45,504 nt of DNA from an uncultured Prevotellaceae bacterium (GTDB lineage: Bacteria > Bacteroidota > Bacteroidia > Bacteroidales > Muribaculaceae), in assembly GCA_947167995.1 (NCBI GenBank), contig CAMVKS010000020.1, positions 1 to 45,504 of the forward strand, given 5' to 3'. Shown piece after piece: positions 38,477 through 45,504 of the stretch. Positions within the stretch are counted from its first letter, which is position 1. The number at the start of each line of letters is the position of its first letter. A model generated the notes under the pieces. It did no database searches. It saw only the letters and a list, made by a program, of their open reading frames with translations, and was not told the DNA's origin. The translations under genes were made by a program, and so were the position numbers.

Positions 38477-41400
38477 ATGCGTATGAAAAAATTACTAACA
38501 TTTTTAACGCTGCTCACACTGTTCTTCACGACGGGATGGGCGGAAACTGAGACATTTGATTTTGCTTTTTCCAACATAGGAACGACTGGATGGAGCAATA
38601 GTTATGCATCACATGTAGTAAATGGCCAAATTTTTACTATTGATCTCGCCAATTGCAGCAAGCAAACTACAACTATTACCGATTACCCCGTTTCTAAAGG
38701 AGGTAACATTACTGCAGAATTCATTAATAACAATAACAATTATTCTATTACTGGTGTTGAATTACAACTAATTCAATGGGGCTCAAAAGCTCAAACAGTT
38801 ACTCTAAAGACAAGTAATGATGGTACAAATTGGACAACAACCAATAATTCCTCAAACAATTTCAGTCTAACCGCAACTGATTTATCATGTAAAAAAATTA
38901 GGTTTGTTTTTTCTTCTACAAGCAACCAAGTAGGATTAAAATCACTTAAAATAACCTATACTACTGGCGGCTCAACTGTCGAGACCGTAGCAACACCTAC
39001 ATTCAACCCTGCCGCTGGAACATATTATGATCCATTGAGCGTTGTTATCAACTGTATTACAAATGGCTCTACTATCCGTTACACTCTTGACGGCACTGAC
39101 CCAACAGCTACAACAGGCACTGTTTACACAAGTCCTATTAGTGTGACTTCAACCACTACTATTAAGGCTATCGCAACAGCTACAGGCTATGACCCAAGTT
39201 CAGTAGCAAGTGCTACTTATACAATCGTCACACCTGAGACTGTAACAATTCCTTATGAGGAATCCTTTGCAGGAACTTTTGGAGATTTCTACAAAAAAGA
39301 TGTCACAGGGACAAACATTTGGGTTACTAACTCTGGTTACGCCAAGGCATCTGGTTATATAAGTGGATCAAACACAGTATCTGAAAGCTGGCTTATTTCA
39401 CCTTATATCAACTTAACTGGCGCTTCTAATCCAGAGCTCTCATTCTCTCATGCTGGAAACTATTTCAATGGCAATATGCAGTCAGATGTGGTGGTAAAGG
39501 TAAAGAAGCAAGGAGATGCCACTTGGTCTGATTTGACTGTTAACACTTGGCCAAATGGAACAAGTTGGACATTTGTTGAGAACACAACCTCATTAGTAGA
39601 TTATGCAGGAGAAACTATTCAGATAGCTTTTGTGTACACTTCTTCCGCAAGTCGTGCTGGAACTTGGGAGATCAAGAATTTAGCGGTTGTTGACACTTCA
39701 ACTCCCGACTATTATCTTTATGGTACGTTCAATAACTGGAATACTCAGGATGCAAACTACAAGTTCAATTTAAACAATGGCACTTATAGCATCACAGGAG
39801 TAGACCTTCCTGACGGTGTCCGTTTCAAGATTGCCAAAGTTGTAAACGGTCAAGTTACAGAAATTGGCGCGAGCAATGGAGGTAACGATTATGGAATCAA
39901 TAGTGGATGGCACAATAACCTTCCTATGAATGGTGCTGATGCTTACACTATTGAATCCGGTGCTCTTACCAACATCACCCTCAACACCACAAACATGACA
40001 TTTGATGTCAGCAGGGACGCTCAATTCTTTATCAAGGGTGACATGAACAGTTGGACAAGAGAGGCTTTGACTCTCGGTGCTGATGGTTGGACCATCAATA
40101 AGGATTTCTCCGCAGGGCAACAGTTCGGTTTCGTTAACGAGTGGGGTTCCTGGTATGGTGGCAACAATTATTGGATTTACCAGGCAAACGACATGGGCAA
40201 TCCACTCACCATCTACAGCAATGACAACTTCAAAATGGTTGATGCAGGCAATTACAATCTTACTGTAAACTCAGCACTCACCACTCTTACTGTCACTTCT
40301 ACCGCAGGCGACACTTACACCCTTGTTACCAGTGCAAGTGAACTCAACGAGAACGACTCTTATATCATCGTATCGAAAGACTACGAGTCTGCAATGGGTG
40401 AGCAAGGAAGTAATAACCGTCGCGGAGCAGAGGTCACTATTAATGGCAACAATGCAATTGCTACCGATGCTGTTGAGGTGTTCTCTCTCGAAGGAAACGC
40501 TACTGACGGTTGGTATTTCAAAGCAACCAAAATCAATACTGGTTATCTTTATGCAGCATCTAATAGTTCTAACCATCTGAAGACAGAGGCTGAACCAGAT
40601 GCTAATGGTAATGCAAAAGCCAGCATTTCTATTGACGCATCTTCAGGCGTAGCCAGCGTTGTTTTCCAAGGCACTAACAGTCACAAAGTGATGCAATATA
40701 ATAGTGGCAGTGATCTTTTCGCTTGCTATAGCGAAGCATCACAAAAAGCTGTTTACCTCTACAAGAAAGGTTCCACCACACCTCCAAGTGACCAGGTAGC
40801 CACTCCATCCATCACTCCTGGATCAAATGATGCTACTGACCCATACGTTGTATATGGTGGAAAGCAACAAATCACTATCAACTGTGCTACCAGTGGAGCC
40901 ACCATCTATTACACTACCGATGGCACTACTCCAACCACCAGTTCAAATCAGTATAGCGAGCCATTCGACTTGACAAGCACTGGCGGTAACGTTACAATTA
41001 AGGCTATCGCTGTTAAGGCAGACATGGATGACAGTGAGATTGCAACATCTTACTACAGATTCACCAGTCCTAAAGCTCCTACATTCGATCCAGCCACCGG
41101 TGCTGTTCGCACAGAAGCATTCGATGTTACTATCAGTAGCGAGTATGATGATGCTGAAATCTACTACATGTTAGACCCAGCAAGTGCTCCAACAGCTGCT
41201 ATAATGTCAACCAACGGCACCCTCTATGAGAACCCTGTAAATGTCAGTGGAGAAGGTTCTCACACCATTTACGCTATGGTTGTAAGAAATGGCATCAAGA
41301 GCTCTGTTGTAAATGCCACCTACACAATCAAATCTGGCACACAGCCTTCAGGTGACGGTGATTATGTAAAGGTTACTAATACAGCCGACCTCACTGATGG

Positions 41401-43615
41401 TGAATACTTAATCGTTTATGAGGGTGATGATGGTCCATTCGCTTTCAATGGCGCATTATCAAACCTTGATGCAACCCCGAACACTATTGATGTAGAAATC
41501 AACGACTTTACAATTCCATCAACTCCAACTGTTGATGCAGCTGTATTCACCTTTGATGCTACTGCAGGTACCTTCATGAACGCAAGTGGCGTTTATATTG
41601 GACGCACAAGCGATGCAAACGGTTTAGAAAGTGGAACAACCGCTTTAACCAACACCGTATCAATTGATAATGAAGGAAATGCTGTAATTATCTCAGAAGG
41701 TGGAGCCTATCTGCGTTACAATGCTAATAGTGGTCAAGATAAATTCCGCTATTTCAAATCAAGCACTTATTCAGCACAACAACCTGTAGCTCTCTACAAG
41801 AAAGTTGACAACAACACTGTCAAGACTCCAGTCATCACTCCTGGAAGCATGAGAATGACTGAGGAGTTTGATGCAACCATCACTTGCGCTACTGAAGGTG
41901 CAACCATTTATTACACATTAGATGGTACTACTCCAACCACCAACAGTGCTGTTTACAATGGTCCTATCCATATTGAAAGACCTACTGTTACCCTCAGTGC
42001 TATCGCTGTACTTGATGGCGAGCAAAGTACTGTTGCCACCGCTGTTTACTCAGGTGTTTGGGTTTACAACCTTGCCGAGTATAATGCACTTGCTAAAGGC
42101 ACTGAGAACATCCTCTTCAAGAACCCAGTAATTGTTCAGTACCACTACATCAGTTCAAGTGGCAAGAGCTATATCTATGTTAAGGACGACACAGGTTGCG
42201 CTTACTTCCACCAGCCAGGTGGATCTATTGCTCAGCTTGAGAACGGTGATGTTATTGGCGCTGGTTTCTCTGGAAACAAAGTAGCTGATGAGATGGTAAG
42301 TGATGAAGAGTCCAACTTCTTCATGCTCACAAACCTTGCAAACTTTGCCGCCAATGGCGACAAGGGTCTTGCAGACCCAGAGCATGAGACAGTAGCTCGC
42401 ATTGCAGATGCCACAACAGGTGTTGCTCTCAACAACCACTACATCACCATCAAGAAAGTTAAGTTGTCAGCTCTCTATCAACCATCTACTATCACCTATG
42501 GCGGTGCTAAGTACTTTGACATTGACAACGAAGCACATATTGGTTACAATAAGTTCAACATTGACTGGAGTGTAGTAGATGATCTCGATGCATATTACAA
42601 CATCACTGGTATCCAGACTGCTTACAACAATGTTATGGAGTTCCATCCAACTGAGATTGTTAAGTGGGAGGAATCGGTAGTCACTTTACGTCAGCTCTGT
42701 GATGAGGGTGTTACCACCGAAGGCGAGAACGAGTACACTATCAGCAACAACCTGATGTGTGTCTTTGCCAAGGACAATAGCATCTGGGTTAAGGATGACA
42801 CCGGTCAATCAATTTGGATGACTTCTCCAGCCGATGGAGACTTGAACTTCGAGGTTTATACCGAGGCAGCCGAAGGCATTCCTGCCAACACACGTCTCAA
42901 CCAGGCATACTACGACCAGAGTAACTGGTGCGAGATAAAGCTTGCCGATGGCGTTGATGCAAGCCAATTTGAAGGACAGATTATCAAGGGCGGTACTATC
43001 CACGGTGAATTTACCGACAAGCTGAATCCAACCCTTGAGAACGTCACTTTGACCAGTGCCGCTATTTCAAGTGAAGGTGATTATGCTCCTAACTACTACA
43101 TGCCAGCAAACTTCTTAGGTCGTCAGGCTTGTCAGAACAGTAGCCACAGCACTGACTTTGGTCAATTCTACTTCTACATGACTCCCAAGCCACAAGAGTA
43201 TGCTCAGATTGTTTGGGCTGTATGGGACGACGAATCCAAGAAGTTCATCATGTCAACCAGTGATAACGACAACGGTCACAGATTCCAAGGTGAGTTCAGC
43301 ATTGACTTGAGCCTAAACACTGGAGTCACAGCTACAGGCGCAATACAACCAGGCTATGGTTATAATTTCAAGGCTATTATTAAGAAAACCGAGTCAAAGG
43401 ATGCTGGTTATATGGTTTATCCATTAGACCTTGACGAGGGTATTGATCCAGCTACAGCAATTGAAAGCGTTGTTGCTGGCAACGGCGAGGTTAAGAGCGT
43501 GAAGTTCTACAACGTAGCTGGTATTGAGAGCGCAACTCCATTCCAGGGCATCAACATCGTGGTTACCGAGTACACCGACGGCACTCGCACCACTACTAAG
43601 ATGCTGTGCAGATAA
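38477..43615 (+). CDS. Giant multimodular secreted protein
   Basis: This 1712-residue protein has a signal peptide (start at 38477 or at the ATG two codons later; MKKLLTFLTLLTLFFTTGWA). Visible parts, in order: a beta domain (25-165), a chitobiase-type repeat (IRYTLDGTDPTATTGTVY), a choice-of-anchor-J-like domain (about 258-415, ESWLISPYINLTG), two glycan-binding-like modules (YLYGTFNNWN; FFIKGDMNSWT), two copies of a domain ending AVYLYKKG and PVALYKKV, more chitobiase-type repeats (TIYYTTDGTTPTTSS; TIYYTLDGTTPTTNS), OB-like domains with YIYVKDDTG and IWVKDDTG, and a tail with FYNVAGIESATPFQGINI. No catalytic domain was seen, so adhesion or glycan binding is likely. The tail and penultimate domain are shared with the amylase. 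No TAnnTTTG box was found. Confidence 0.85.
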   Translation: MRMKKLLTFLTLLTLFFTTGWAETETFDFAFSNIGTTGWSNSYASHVVNGQIFTIDLANCSKQTTTITDYPVSKGGNITAEFINNNNNYSITGVELQLIQWGSKAQTVTLKTSNDGTNWTTTNNSSNNFSLTATDLSCKKIRFVFSSTSNQVGLKSLKITYTTGGSTVETVATPTFNPAAGTYYDPLSVVINCITNGSTIRYTLDGTDPTATTGTVYTSPISVTSTTTIKAIATATGYDPSSVASATYTIVTPETVTIPYEESFAGTFGDFYKKDVTGTNIWVTNSGYAKASGYISGSNTVSESWLISPYINLTGASNPELSFSHAGNYFNGNMQSDVVVKVKKQGDATWSDLTVNTWPNGTSWTFVENTTSLVDYAGETIQIAFVYTSSASRAGTWEIKNLAVVDTSTPDYYLYGTFNNWNTQDANYKFNLNNGTYSITGVDLPDGVRFKIAKVVNGQVTEIGASNGGNDYGINSGWHNNLPMNGADAYTIESGALTNITLNTTNMTFDVSRDAQFFIKGDMNSWTREALTLGADGWTINKDFSAGQQFGFVNEWGSWYGGNNYWIYQANDMGNPLTIYSNDNFKMVDAGNYNLTVNSALTTLTVTSTAGDTYTLVTSASELNENDSYIIVSKDYESAMGEQGSNNRRGAEVTINGNNAIATDAVEVFSLEGNATDGWYFKATKINTGYLYAASNSSNHLKTEAEPDANGNAKASISIDASSGVASVVFQGTNSHKVMQYNSGSDLFACYSEASQKAVYLYKKGSTTPPSDQVATPSITPGSNDATDPYVVYGGKQQITINCATSGATIYYTTDGTTPTTSSNQYSEPFDLTSTGGNVTIKAIAVKADMDDSEIATSYYRFTSPKAPTFDPATGAVRTEAFDVTISSEYDDAEIYYMLDPASAPTAAIMSTNGTLYENPVNVSGEGSHTIYAMVVRNGIKSSVVNATYTIKSGTQPSGDGDYVKVTNTADLTDGEYLIVYEGDDGPFAFNGALSNLDATPNTIDVEINDFTIPSTPTVDAAVFTFDATAGTFMNASGVYIGRTSDANGLESGTTALTNTVSIDNEGNAVIISEGGAYLRYNANSGQDKFRYFKSSTYSAQQPVALYKKVDNNTVKTPVITPGSMRMTEEFDATITCATEGATIYYTLDGTTPTTNSAVYNGPIHIERPTVTLSAIAVLDGEQSTVATAVYSGVWVYNLAEYNALAKGTENILFKNPVIVQYHYISSSGKSYIYVKDDTGCAYFHQPGGSIAQLENGDVIGAGFSGNKVADEMVSDEESNFFMLTNLANFAANGDKGLADPEHETVARIADATTGVALNNHYITIKKVKLSALYQPSTITYGGAKYFDIDNEAHIGYNKFNIDWSVVDDLDAYYNITGIQTAYNNVMEFHPTEIVKWEESVVTLRQLCDEGVTTEGENEYTISNNLMCVFAKDNSIWVKDDTGQSIWMTSPADGDLNFEVYTEAAEGIPANTRLNQAYYDQSNWCEIKLADGVDASQFEGQIIKGGTIHGEFTDKLNPTLENVTLTSAAISSEGDYAPNYYMPANFLGRQACQNSSHSTDFGQFYFYMTPKPQEYAQIVWAVWDDESKKFIMSTSDNDNGHRFQGEFSIDLSLNTGVTATGAIQPGYGYNFKAIIKKTESKDAGYMVYPLDLDEGIDPATAIESVVAGNGEVKSVKFYNVAGIESATPFQGINIVVTEYTDGTRTTTKMLCR

Positions 43616-43709: not shown

Positions 43710-44134
43710 ACGCCGCGCGTGCGGCGCAATACTTGACCACCACCAGGATTTTTCTCTCGCAACTTGCCGATTGACTCTTATCCTCTCGACTGCAACTTTT
43801 ACGCCGCGCATGCGGCGCAATACTTGACCACCACCGGGATTCTTCTCTCGCAACCTGCCGCTAGGATTCTTTTCTCGCAACCTGCCGCTCGACTCTTATC
43901 CTCTTGACTGCAACTTTTACGCCGCGCATGCGGCGCAATACTTGACCACCACCAGGATTCTTTTCTCGCAACCTGCCGCTCGACTCTTATCCTCTCGACT
44001 GCAACTTTTACGCCGCGCTTGCGGCGCAATACTTGACCACCACCAGGATTCTTTTCTCGCAACCTGCCGATTGACTCTTATCCTCTTGACTGCAACTTTT
44101 ACGCCGCGCGTGCGGCGCAATACTTGACCACCAC
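43710..44134. repeat. Tandem array of five REP-like hairpin units, period 91 nt
   Basis: Units begin at 43710, 43801, 43919, 44010 and 44101, so the step is 91, 118, 91, 91. Each starts ACGCCGCGC[NT]GCGGCGC-like: CGCCGC pairs with GCGGCG around a loop GCGT, GCAT, GCAT, GCTT, GCGT. Then come AATACTTGACCACCAC and a conserved stretch with TCTCGCAACCTGCCG and GACTCTTATCCTCT. The 118-nt step is due to a 27-nt internal duplication (43863-43889). The last unit is cut after about 34 nt. The intervals are conserved, so this is not CRISPR. Minus-strand open frames here are by-products of the repeat. Confidence 0.9.
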
Positions 44135-44192
44135 TCTTCTCTAACTCTCGCCTCATCACTCGCCTCTCGTGTTGTTAATGGTTTGTGTATTG

Positions 44193-44208
44193 CGAGGCAA
44201 GCGCCTCG
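44193..44208. other. Short GC-rich hairpin between array and transposase
   Basis: CGAGGC (44193-44198) pairs with GCCTCG (44203-44208) around AAGC. It differs from the array hairpin in sequence but has a similar size and GC content. Otherwise 44135-44288 contains nothing recognised. Confidence 0.4.
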
Positions 44209-44288
44209 TTCATGTCGCAGTTATTGTGGCAATTCTCGCTCTTGAGATAAAAACACCTTCATTCTTTGGTAAAAATGTGAAAAACCAC

Positions 44289-44296
44289 TATTTTTG
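44289..44296 (+). promoter_or_regulatory. Bacteroidota -7 box TATTTTTG
   Basis: TATTTTTG followed by CAC ends five nt before the ATG at 44302, again predicting an almost leaderless transcript. Confidence 0.5.
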
Positions 44297-44301
44297 CACT
44301 T

Positions 44302-45273
44302 ATGGATGATTATCGCAATGAACAACGGCGGCAGTGGTGGCAGCGCAATGCCGGGAAATACCAGAAGAAGCCTTCAATGTCGCGCCGCATGGCTGGTCAT
44401 GACTATTATGGGCGCTGCATCTACATGATAACGATTGTTGTTGCCGGCCGCCGCAAGCTGCTGGGCACTCTATGTGGTCCTGACGAGAGCCACATGGCAT
44501 GGGTTAAGGCTTCGGCTTTGGGCGATGCCGTGAAACGCTACTGGCACGAGATTCCATTGCATCACCCTCATGTAAAAGTGCTTAGAGGCCAGCTTATGCC
44601 CGACCATTTCCACGGCATCCTTTTTGTGACCGAGAAGACCAGCGTGCCTCTTGGCACAATTATTAATAGTTTCAAGAAGGCGTGCACCTTCGCGGCTCGC
44701 GAGTTGAATATTGCCACGCCGTTGTGGGAGAGCGATTACCATGACCTTATCCTAAGCTCAAGAGGCCAATTGAGCAGCATGATAAACTATGTTGACGACA
44801 ACCCGCGGCGGCTGTGGGTGAAAAGAAACAACAGCGATTTCTTCAAAGTGAGAAAAATGGTTGAGGCAGGCGGGCAGCAGGTGGAAGCCCTCGGGAACCT
44901 GTTCCTGCTCGACTTTCCTGTGATAACCGCCGTGCAATGCACTCGTAAGCTGACAAAAGAACAGATTCAAGCGCAAGTGGAGCATTTTCTTGCACTGGCA
45001 CAACGCGGCGTGGTGCTCGTGTCACCAGCCATCAGTCCAGGCGAAAAAGAGGTGATTAAAGCGGCACAAGCCGCCCACTGCAAGGTGATAAAGATTGTGG
45101 ACAACGGTTTCACGTCGCTTTCCAAGCCTTCGGGCGAGGACTTTGATGCCTGCTCCCGTGGCGACCTGCTGCTCATTTCACCTTTTAAGCACCAGAACCA
45201 TCGCACAGGCCTCACCGAGCAGATTTGCTACCACCTCAATGCCCTTGCCGCCGCCATAGCCACCACCTCATAA
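44302..45273 (+). CDS. Y1/HUH transposase (RAYT-like) fused to Rossmann/SLOG-like domain
   Basis: This 323-residue protein has two parts. Residues about 35-175 are a Y1 transposase domain with the HUH motif His102-Phe-His104 in MPDHFHGILFV and the candidate nucleophile Tyr163 in INYVDDNPRRLW. Residues about 205-320 look like a Rossmann-type fold of the DprA/SLOG kind: VVLVSPAISPGEKEVIKAA, then KVIKIVDNGF, then FDACSRGDLLLISPF and a C-terminal helix. A typical RAYT ends soon after the Tyr helix, so the second domain is an extra. The gene lies between five upstream and two downstream copies of the same GC-rich hairpin, all in one orientation. The catalytic residues look intact. The SLOG assignment is by eye only. 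Confidence 0.85.
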   Translation: MDDYRNEQRRQWWQRNAGKYQKKPSMSRRMAGHDYYGRCIYMITIVVAGRRKLLGTLCGPDESHMAWVKASALGDAVKRYWHEIPLHHPHVKVLRGQLMPDHFHGILFVTEKTSVPLGTIINSFKKACTFAARELNIATPLWESDYHDLILSSRGQLSSMINYVDDNPRRLWVKRNNSDFFKVRKMVEAGGQQVEALGNLFLLDFPVITAVQCTRKLTKEQIQAQVEHFLALAQRGVVLVSPAISPGEKEVIKAAQAAHCKVIKIVDNGFTSLSKPSGEDFDACSRGDLLLISPFKHQNHRTGLTEQICYHLNALAAAIATTS

Positions 45274-45306
45274 CGGATGAGATGCAAATCGCTTTACTGC
45301 TCTTGA

Positions 45307-45338
45307 ACGCCGCGCTTGCGGCTCAATACTCGACAACC
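45307..45338. repeat. REP-like hairpin, right flank copy 1
   Basis: ACGCCGCGCTTGCGGCTCAA followed by TACTCGACAACC matches the array units with a few changes; the stem is GCCGC/GCGGC with a GCTT loop core. Confidence 0.8.
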
Positions 45339-45376
45339 TCGCCGCTCTCCCCTCGCGCCACAATGCTGCTTCTTGA

Positions 45377-45410
45377 ACGCCGCGCTTGCGGCGCAATACT
45401 CGACCACCAC
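45377..45410. repeat. REP-like hairpin, right flank copy 2
   Basis: ACGCCGCGCTTGCGGCGCAA followed by TACTCGACCACCAC is nearly identical to the array units (TACTCGACC for TACTTGACC). It is 70 nt after right copy 1; both are preceded by CTTGA. Confidence 0.85.
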
Positions 45411-45421
45411 TCCTCCCTCTA

Positions 45422-45504
45422 CACCTCTCCACTCTCGTCTCTCCACTCTCACCTCTCCACTCTCACCTCTCCACTCTCACCTCTCCACTCCACCTCTCCA
45501 CTCC
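45422..45504. repeat. Tandem array of 14-nt units (CACCTCTCCACTCT) running off right edge
   Basis: Six units are visible: three perfect copies of CACCTCTCCACTCT, one with CGT at its start, and two ending ACTCC. The unit is two related heptamers (CACCTCT, CCACTCT), so the period again is a multiple of seven. The strand is purely pyrimidine plus A with hardly any G. It continues past the window. Confidence 0.85.

What the first reader, a model, noticed from the sequence alone, without database searches (positions are those of the whole stretch)
43710..45410. Y1-Rossmann fusion transposase embedded in a seven-copy hairpin system
Five tandem REP-like units (period 91 nt) precede and two follow a gene whose product joins an HUH/Tyr transposase domain to a Rossmann fold resembling DprA/SLOG. 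All hairpins share the same stem, orientation and flank (AATACTnGACCACCAC), while one loop base varies (GCGT, GCAT, GCTT). Known RAYTs have REP partners, but a nucleotide- or ssDNA-sensing type second domain and a long-unit tandem array are unusual. Possible readings are a REP-expansion machine, a regulated ssDNA system, or a defence-type sensor-effector pair. The sequence facts are direct; the function is inferred.
Basis: partly seen in the sequence, partly recalled or inferred. Interest (0 to 1): 0.85.

Follow-up and report, generated by a model that had tools for sequence, protein, structure and literature searches.

The report
REP transposase with DprA-like domain
A bacterium related to rumen Bacteroidales carries a REP-type transposase fused to a DprA-like, possibly DNA-gripping, domain; it belongs to a large family, some of whose members have their own kind of short hairpin repeat around the gene.

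The parts
44302..45273 (+). Y1-DprA fusion gene, 323 aa: HUH H102/H104, catalytic Tyr163, C-terminal DprA-like domain about 180-322
43711..43732 (-). REP copy 1: hairpin 43711-43726 plus foot (CAATAC on +; GTATTG 5' of the stem on -)
43802..43823 (-). REP copy 2
43920..43941 (-). REP copy 3 (118 nt after copy 2; the spacer before it carries a 27-nt internal duplication, seen in the sequence)
44011..44032 (-). REP copy 4
44102..44123 (-). REP copy 5
44187..44208 (+). inverted REP: GTATTG foot 44187-44192 and hairpin 44193-44208 with compensated stem CGAGGC/GCCTCG; with copy 5 it forms a REPIN-like inverted pair
45308..45329 (-). REP copy 6, degenerate (one stem mismatch)
45378..45399 (-). REP copy 7
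45408..45504 (.). CT-rich low-complexity tract (14-nt register) at which the contig ends; a like tract begins contig C31

Best explanation
This is a REPtron: a vertically inherited REP-associated Y1 transposase (RAYT/TnpA_REP type) with its cognate REPs. SHOWN by sequence and predicted fold: intact catalytic residues, a DprA-like C-terminal domain under purifying selection, hairpins with a conserved 5' GTAT(T) foot in direct and inverted orientation, stem covariation, and copy number that differs between species at one fixed chromosomal site. INFERRED: the Y1 domain binds the GTATTG-hairpin on exposed single strand (for example the lagging-strand template), nicks near it and forms a 5'-phosphotyrosine link; the DprA-like domain holds the adjoining single strand, helping strand transfer or annealing so that REP-plus-spacer units are duplicated locally and occasionally moved elsewhere. 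The inverted REP about 100 nt before the start codon, kept in all five orthologues, may also let the protein limit its own expression.
Against: No biochemical evidence. In the own genome all 8 REPs sit at this one site (C31 counted as its neighbour), so movement away is not seen there. Tandem units could come from slippage or recombination without the enzyme; the spacers are duplicated too. The foot is GTAT, not canonical GT[AG]G, and the GCCGTGG-stem clade of 13 rows shows no uniform foot. The DprA link at sequence level is weak for the window protein itself: no Pfam DprA hit at E<=1, hhalign probability 5.4% (E 0.0072), PDB profile E 0.24. A related 38-row clade keeps both domains but has recurring hairpins in 1 row. 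The orthologue in G011 has no REP downstream.
Confidence: 0.62

Rival explanations
1. The hairpins are the ends of a complete IS200/IS605-type single-strand transposon: gene plus flanking hairpins move as one unit.
Against: Orthologues sit between the same neighbours in 5 of 5 genomes. Paralogues in the own genome are only 45-48% identical, plus a 39% fragment, not recent copies. The number of scanned hairpins varies from 2 to 25 around an unmoved gene.
Confidence: 0.12
2. Defence or toxin-antitoxin component: the DprA-like domain (ShosA/PsyrA-like) senses phage or foreign ssDNA and the Y1 domain is the effector.
Against: The window protein has no PADLOC hit. No shared neighbour across the family: with up to two ORFs a side, the largest cluster covers 7 of 80 loci. 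The window gene lies beside a gene for a large CHB_HEX_C_1/Fn3_assoc protein and, in orthologues, before a Big_5-domain gene; nothing there looks like a defence cluster.
Confidence: 0.1
3. The hairpins are passive: terminator- or regulator-like repeats spread by replication slippage in CT-rich DNA; the neighbouring transposase is incidental.
For: The spacers are duplicated along with the hairpins and the tract is CT-rich and repetitive. In the own genome all copies are local.
Against: Stem type, and in two clades the foot, go with the transposase clade. REPs are dispersed in 2 of 5 genomes and nearly absent from ten genomes without the clade. Stems covary. Hairpins recur beside 37 of 129 family genes against 1 of 81 distal controls.
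Confidence: 0.16

Closest known systems
RAYT / TnpA_REP and REPtrons (PMC6006769, PMC8266576)
   Same: HUH plus single Tyr with YxxNP motif; gene flanked by direct and inverted hairpins with a conserved 5' tetranucleotide; fixed location and no near-identical copies; REP type going with transposase clade.
   Different: Extra C-terminal DprA-like domain of about 140 aa; foot GTAT rather than GT[AG]G; motifs fit none of the published subclass motif sets as read; own genome has REPs at one site only; up to 25 scanned copies at the gene in a relative.
DprA / ShosA / PsyrA (DprA-SLOG Rossmann family)
   Same: Predicted fold of residues 180-322; a profile of the domain finds these families; the conserved arginine of the DprA GTR/GSR motif is retained.
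   Different: Covers only about two thirds of the DprA Rossmann domain (to residue 153 of HpDprA, 218 of SpDprA), no Pfam DprA hit for the window protein, no further domain after it, and not the region of the RecA-contacting EDE triad (E235/D243/E265 of SpDprA).
IS200/IS605 (IS608, ISDra2)
   Same: Same catalytic fold; hairpins with a foot 5' of the stem.
   Different: No near-identical copies in the genome, no simple left-end/right-end pair in the window, fixed location across species.

Membership tests
RAYT / TnpA_REP | HUH motif and one catalytic Tyr in a Y1 fold | tested here: met
RAYT / TnpA_REP | class-2 YxxNP tyrosine motif | tested here: met
   YVDDNP in the window; Y163, N167, P168 invariant
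RAYT / TnpA_REP | gene flanked by REPs, hairpins with a conserved tetranucleotide 5' of the stem | tested here: met
   7 direct copies plus 1 inverted copy in the window, all with GTATT
RAYT subclasses 2.2, 2.4, 2.5, 2.7, 2.8 (canonical REP) | tetranucleotide GT[AG]G | tested here: not met
   GTAT in the window; GTGG(G) does occur in the CCGRGG clade
any of the published TnpA_Y1 subclasses | subclass HuH/W/Y motif sets of Table 1 in PMC6006769 | tested here: not met
   the combination DHFH, WE, YxxDNP is not in the table as read in a passage (compared by eye, no profile run)
RAYT / TnpA_REP | no near-identical copies; vertical inheritance | tested here: met
   same neighbours in 5 of 5 orthologues; paralogues 45-48% identical
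RAYT / TnpA_REP | REPs dispersed genome-wide | tested here: inconclusive
   own genome 0 of 8 away from the locus; G061 2 of 20, G062 16 of 22, G063 11 of 14 away
NCBIfam NF047646 REP_Tyr_transpos | score over curated cut-off 80 | tested here: not met
   31.7 bits
DprA | DprA-type Rossmann fold | tested here: met
DprA | Pfam PF02481 over cut-off | tested here: not met
   no hit for the window protein; 3 of 64 members, best E 0.071
DprA | ssDNA-binding Arg (HpDprA R52 / SpDprA R115) | tested here: inconclusive
   R215 aligns with it and is 90% or more conserved, but alignment E 0.24-0.28; K137 and R143 equivalents not checked
DprA | RecA-contacting EDE triad | tested here: not met
   aligned part of SpDprA ends at residue 218, the triad is at 235-265
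IS200/IS605 element | near-identical copies in one genome | tested here: not met
   best paralogue 48%
ShosTA / PsyrTA defence | adjacent toxin/effector gene conserved across homologues | tested here: not met
   largest neighbour cluster 7 of 80 loci, up to two ORFs of 120 aa or more a side

The most novel reading that the evidence does not exclude
A natural fusion couples REP cleavage to a DprA-derived single-strand module, so REPs spread by capture and annealing (recombination-like copying) of excised single strands rather than by simple transposition. This would give a direct mechanism for the unexplained dissemination and tandem growth of REPs, in a large, apparently undescribed RAYT subclass of gut and rumen Bacteroidales.
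Probability: 0.3. Interest if true: 0.75.

Novelty: new variant of a known kind. Interest (0 to 1): 0.55.

Why it matters
The RAYT literature states that the mechanism by which REPs spread remains to be elucidated (PMC8266576, introduction). A RAYT carrying a DprA-like domain points to single-strand handling as a possible missing step, and the five orthologous loci with 2 to 25 scanned copies are a natural series in which to test it. The family is large (1963 proteins at E<=0.001) and, in the 80 named loci I saw, comes from Bacteroidales assemblies, many from ruminants. My paper searches listed no paper whose title or abstract start describes such a fusion; most listed papers were not opened.

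Tried and rejected
Pfam and NCBIfam alone do not name the C-domain. hhalign of 13 C-domains against 9 DprA-type sequences was weak (probability 5.4%, E 0.0072). A search for short proteins made of the C-domain alone gave 3 hits (lengths 92-189 aa, longest contigs 576-1150 bases), which look like fragments. Defence was tested with PADLOC and neighbour clustering and set aside. A mobile IS200-like unit was tested by synteny and set aside. The repeated-22-mer test (75 of 121 loci against 10 of 81 controls) also counts plain tandem repeats, so the stricter recurring-hairpin test (37 of 129 against 1 of 81) is preferred; that test is strict enough to label only 3 of the 5 own-clade loci. Simple hairpin counts were positive but less sharp (31 of 78 upstream and 28 of 79 downstream flanks against 12 of 73 and 8 of 72 distal; shuffled flanks 69 of 785), and words of 15 or more shared between upstream and downstream flanks were seen in 14 of 74 loci against 0 of 63 distal and 2 of 74 mismatched pairs. 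Stand-alone literature searches returned RAYT papers and much noise.

The 5S matches in L185, L187 and L189 are cut by contig ends; L188 was judged from its sequence only, as Rfam did not report it. secDF, the lipoprotein nature of the Big_5 protein, and the homology of the upstream secreted proteins were judged by eye and by the clusters.

Papers: PMC6006769 (abstract, outline, passages, sections 11 and 12), PMC3733652 (passages), PMC8266576 (abstract, outline, introduction, first part of the discussion), PMC4489622, PMC4066776 and PMC9122126 (passages); all others search listings only. That RUG assemblies are rumen genomes, and what REPIN means, is recalled.

Full report
WHAT IS THERE. The window is contig C20 of a 2.9-Mb, 121-contig genome. 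At 44302-45273 lies a 323-codon gene. Upstream are five copies and downstream two copies of a hairpin CGCCGC-GC(G/A/T)T-GCGGCG followed by CAATACTnGACCACCAC; copy 6 departs from this. Spacing is 91, 118, 91, 91, then 70. An additional hairpin at 44193-44208 (CGAGGC-AAGC-GCCTCG) is preceded by GTATTG, the reverse complement of the foot of the others, so it reads as an inverted copy with two compensated stem pairs. Read on the minus strand the seven direct copies are 5'-GTATTG-hairpin. Five of the eight elements were folded and beat most dinucleotide shuffles (z -2.0 to -3.2). In the whole genome the 34-nt core with up to three mismatches occurs 8 times and its reversed control 0 times; seven are in the window and the eighth is at base 94 of contig C31.

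THE CONTIG END. C31 opens with a CT-rich repeat like that which ends C20, then one REP, then a Big_5-domain (lipoprotein-like) gene and a secDF-like gene (secDF named by eye). In genome G011 the orthologous gene (88% identical) lies between a gene whose C-terminus resembles that of the window's upstream protein and the same Big_5-type and secDF-like genes. So C31 most likely follows C20.

WHAT THE SECOND DOMAIN CAN AND CANNOT BE. The HMMER alignment puts Arg215 on the first arginine of the HpDprA GTRR motif and on residue 115 of the SpDprA chain (E 0.24-0.28). The literature names this residue (HpDprA R52, SpDprA R115) as important for ssDNA binding (passages). The aligned part of SpDprA stops at residue 218, before the RecA-contacting E235/D243/E265. 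So an ssDNA-holding role is plausible; RecA loading by the known contact is not. Between five orthologues dN/dS (NG86) is 0.06-0.15 over the whole gene and 0.05-0.13 over the C-domain (10 pairs; dS is high in most pairs and one N-domain value could not be computed), so the domain is maintained.

ORTHOLOGUES AS A NATURAL SERIES. Scanned for a 32-nt core with up to nine mismatches, the loci carry 7 (window), 4 (G011, one of them the inverted copy), 25 (L105), 6 (L106) and 2 (L107) copies; the inverted hairpins of the window, L105, L106 and L107 fell outside that threshold but are visible in the sequence. An inverted hairpin about 100 nt upstream of the start is present in all five; in L105 and L106 its foot reads GTGTTG, and in L106 one stem pair is broken. 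G011 has no REP downstream. L105-L107 are uncultured Bacteroidales/Prevotellaceae assemblies of the RUG series. The tandem units contain the spacer as well as the hairpin, so local duplication is the simplest account of the array.

DISPERSAL. The 22-nt pattern CGCCGCNNNTGCGGCGCAATAC with up to three mismatches gave 8 hits in G000 (all at the locus, counting C31), 5 in G011 (3 at the locus; two 3-mismatch hits look like chance), 20 in G061 (18 at the locus), 22 in G062 (6 at the locus), 14 in G063 (3 at the locus); the reversed pattern gave 0 in these five. In ten genomes without this clade it gave 8 hits in all, seven of them at 3 mismatches, against 4 for the reversed pattern. Several dispersed copies lie after 5S rRNA genes (L185, L187, L189, L190) or near a tRNA (L186). 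Over 32 distinct hairpins from the 67 kept copies, 168 of 192 stem cells pair (2000 shuffles: mean 161, maximum 167), and 8 cells are changed on both sides (mean 1.7, maximum 6). The hits were picked by similarity and are related, so this is support, not proof.

FAMILY. 1963 proteins match at E<=0.001. 38 of 61 searched genomes have a match: 30 of the 37 genomes of the own genus, often several per genome, and 8 of 24 others, mostly weak and to the Y1 part; of these only G054 matched across both domains. Among 129 distinct family loci, 37 have recurring hairpins within 450 nt, against 1 of 81 distal controls; the label is clustered on a quick tree (0 of 500 shuffles as low; near-copies help this). 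Two clades besides the own one were read for stem and foot: GTATT with GCGAGC stems, as in the own clade with CGCCGC stems, and GTGGG with CCGRGG stems; a third, with GCCGTGG stems, shows no uniform foot. In the GCGAGC clade an inverted copy sits 33-34 nt before the start in 6 of 8 loci. The hairpin GCGAGCCNNNGGCTCGC occurs 2-8 times in each of seven genomes that carry that clade and, of seven other genomes, once in one. Of 12 copies away from the gene in those seven genomes, 9 keep the foot (CAATAC after or GTATTG before the stem: L093, L094 twice, L095, L096, L097, L099, L101, L102); L098 and both copies in L100 do not. Against this, a 38-row clade that includes the own genome's C16 paralogue has recurring hairpins in 1 row; 13 further rows have repeated words without recurring hairpins.

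COMPARISON. TnpA_Y1 proteins are placed by Quentin et al. in 12 subclasses, some with extra C-terminal domains, but DprA occurs 0 times in that text and its motif table has no set with DHFH, WE and YxxDNP (passage). The REPtron layout, clade-linked REPs and fixed location fit RAYTs as described there and in PMC8266576. I therefore read it as a new RAYT-type subclass with a DprA-like domain, not as DprA, not as an IS200/IS605 element, and not as a defence system.

CERTAINTY. Hairpins, inverted partner, fusion, conserved catalytic residues and synteny are shown by sequence or confident prediction. That the enzyme acts on these REPs is inferred from co-occurrence and from characterised RAYTs. That the DprA-like domain holds single strands during REP processing is a hypothesis with modest support.

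Noticed in passing
L185, L187, L189, L190, L186 (genomes G062, G063): Dispersed REP copies lie downstream of 5S rRNA genes (four by Rfam) or near a tRNA, several near contig ends, suggesting a preference for, or copying along with, rRNA operons.
   Followed up: partly
window 45408-45504; L107 about 120-600 nt upstream of the gene; L092 1-60: Long CT-rich, strand-asymmetric low-complexity tracts lie beside the REPs in several orthologues; contigs C20 and C31 end in one.
   Followed up: no
own genome C74:6494-6841 (L005, L104): A fragment matching only the C-terminal domain of the family (39% identical), perhaps a decayed paralogue.
   Followed up: no
L063-L067 and Prevotella relatives: A clade with both domains, roughly 30 extra residues near residue 140 (from the gap between the two matches) and almost no neighbouring recurring hairpins; it may have a REP-independent role.
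   Followed up: partly
window 38477-43615: Large protein (1712 aa) with repeated CHB_HEX_C_1 and Fn3_assoc domains next to the array.
   Followed up: partly
L198, L199 (genomes G341, G333): Proteins of about 670 aa; L198 has two DprA/PsyrA-type stretches by Pfam and PADLOC, L199 looks alike by eye.
   Followed up: no
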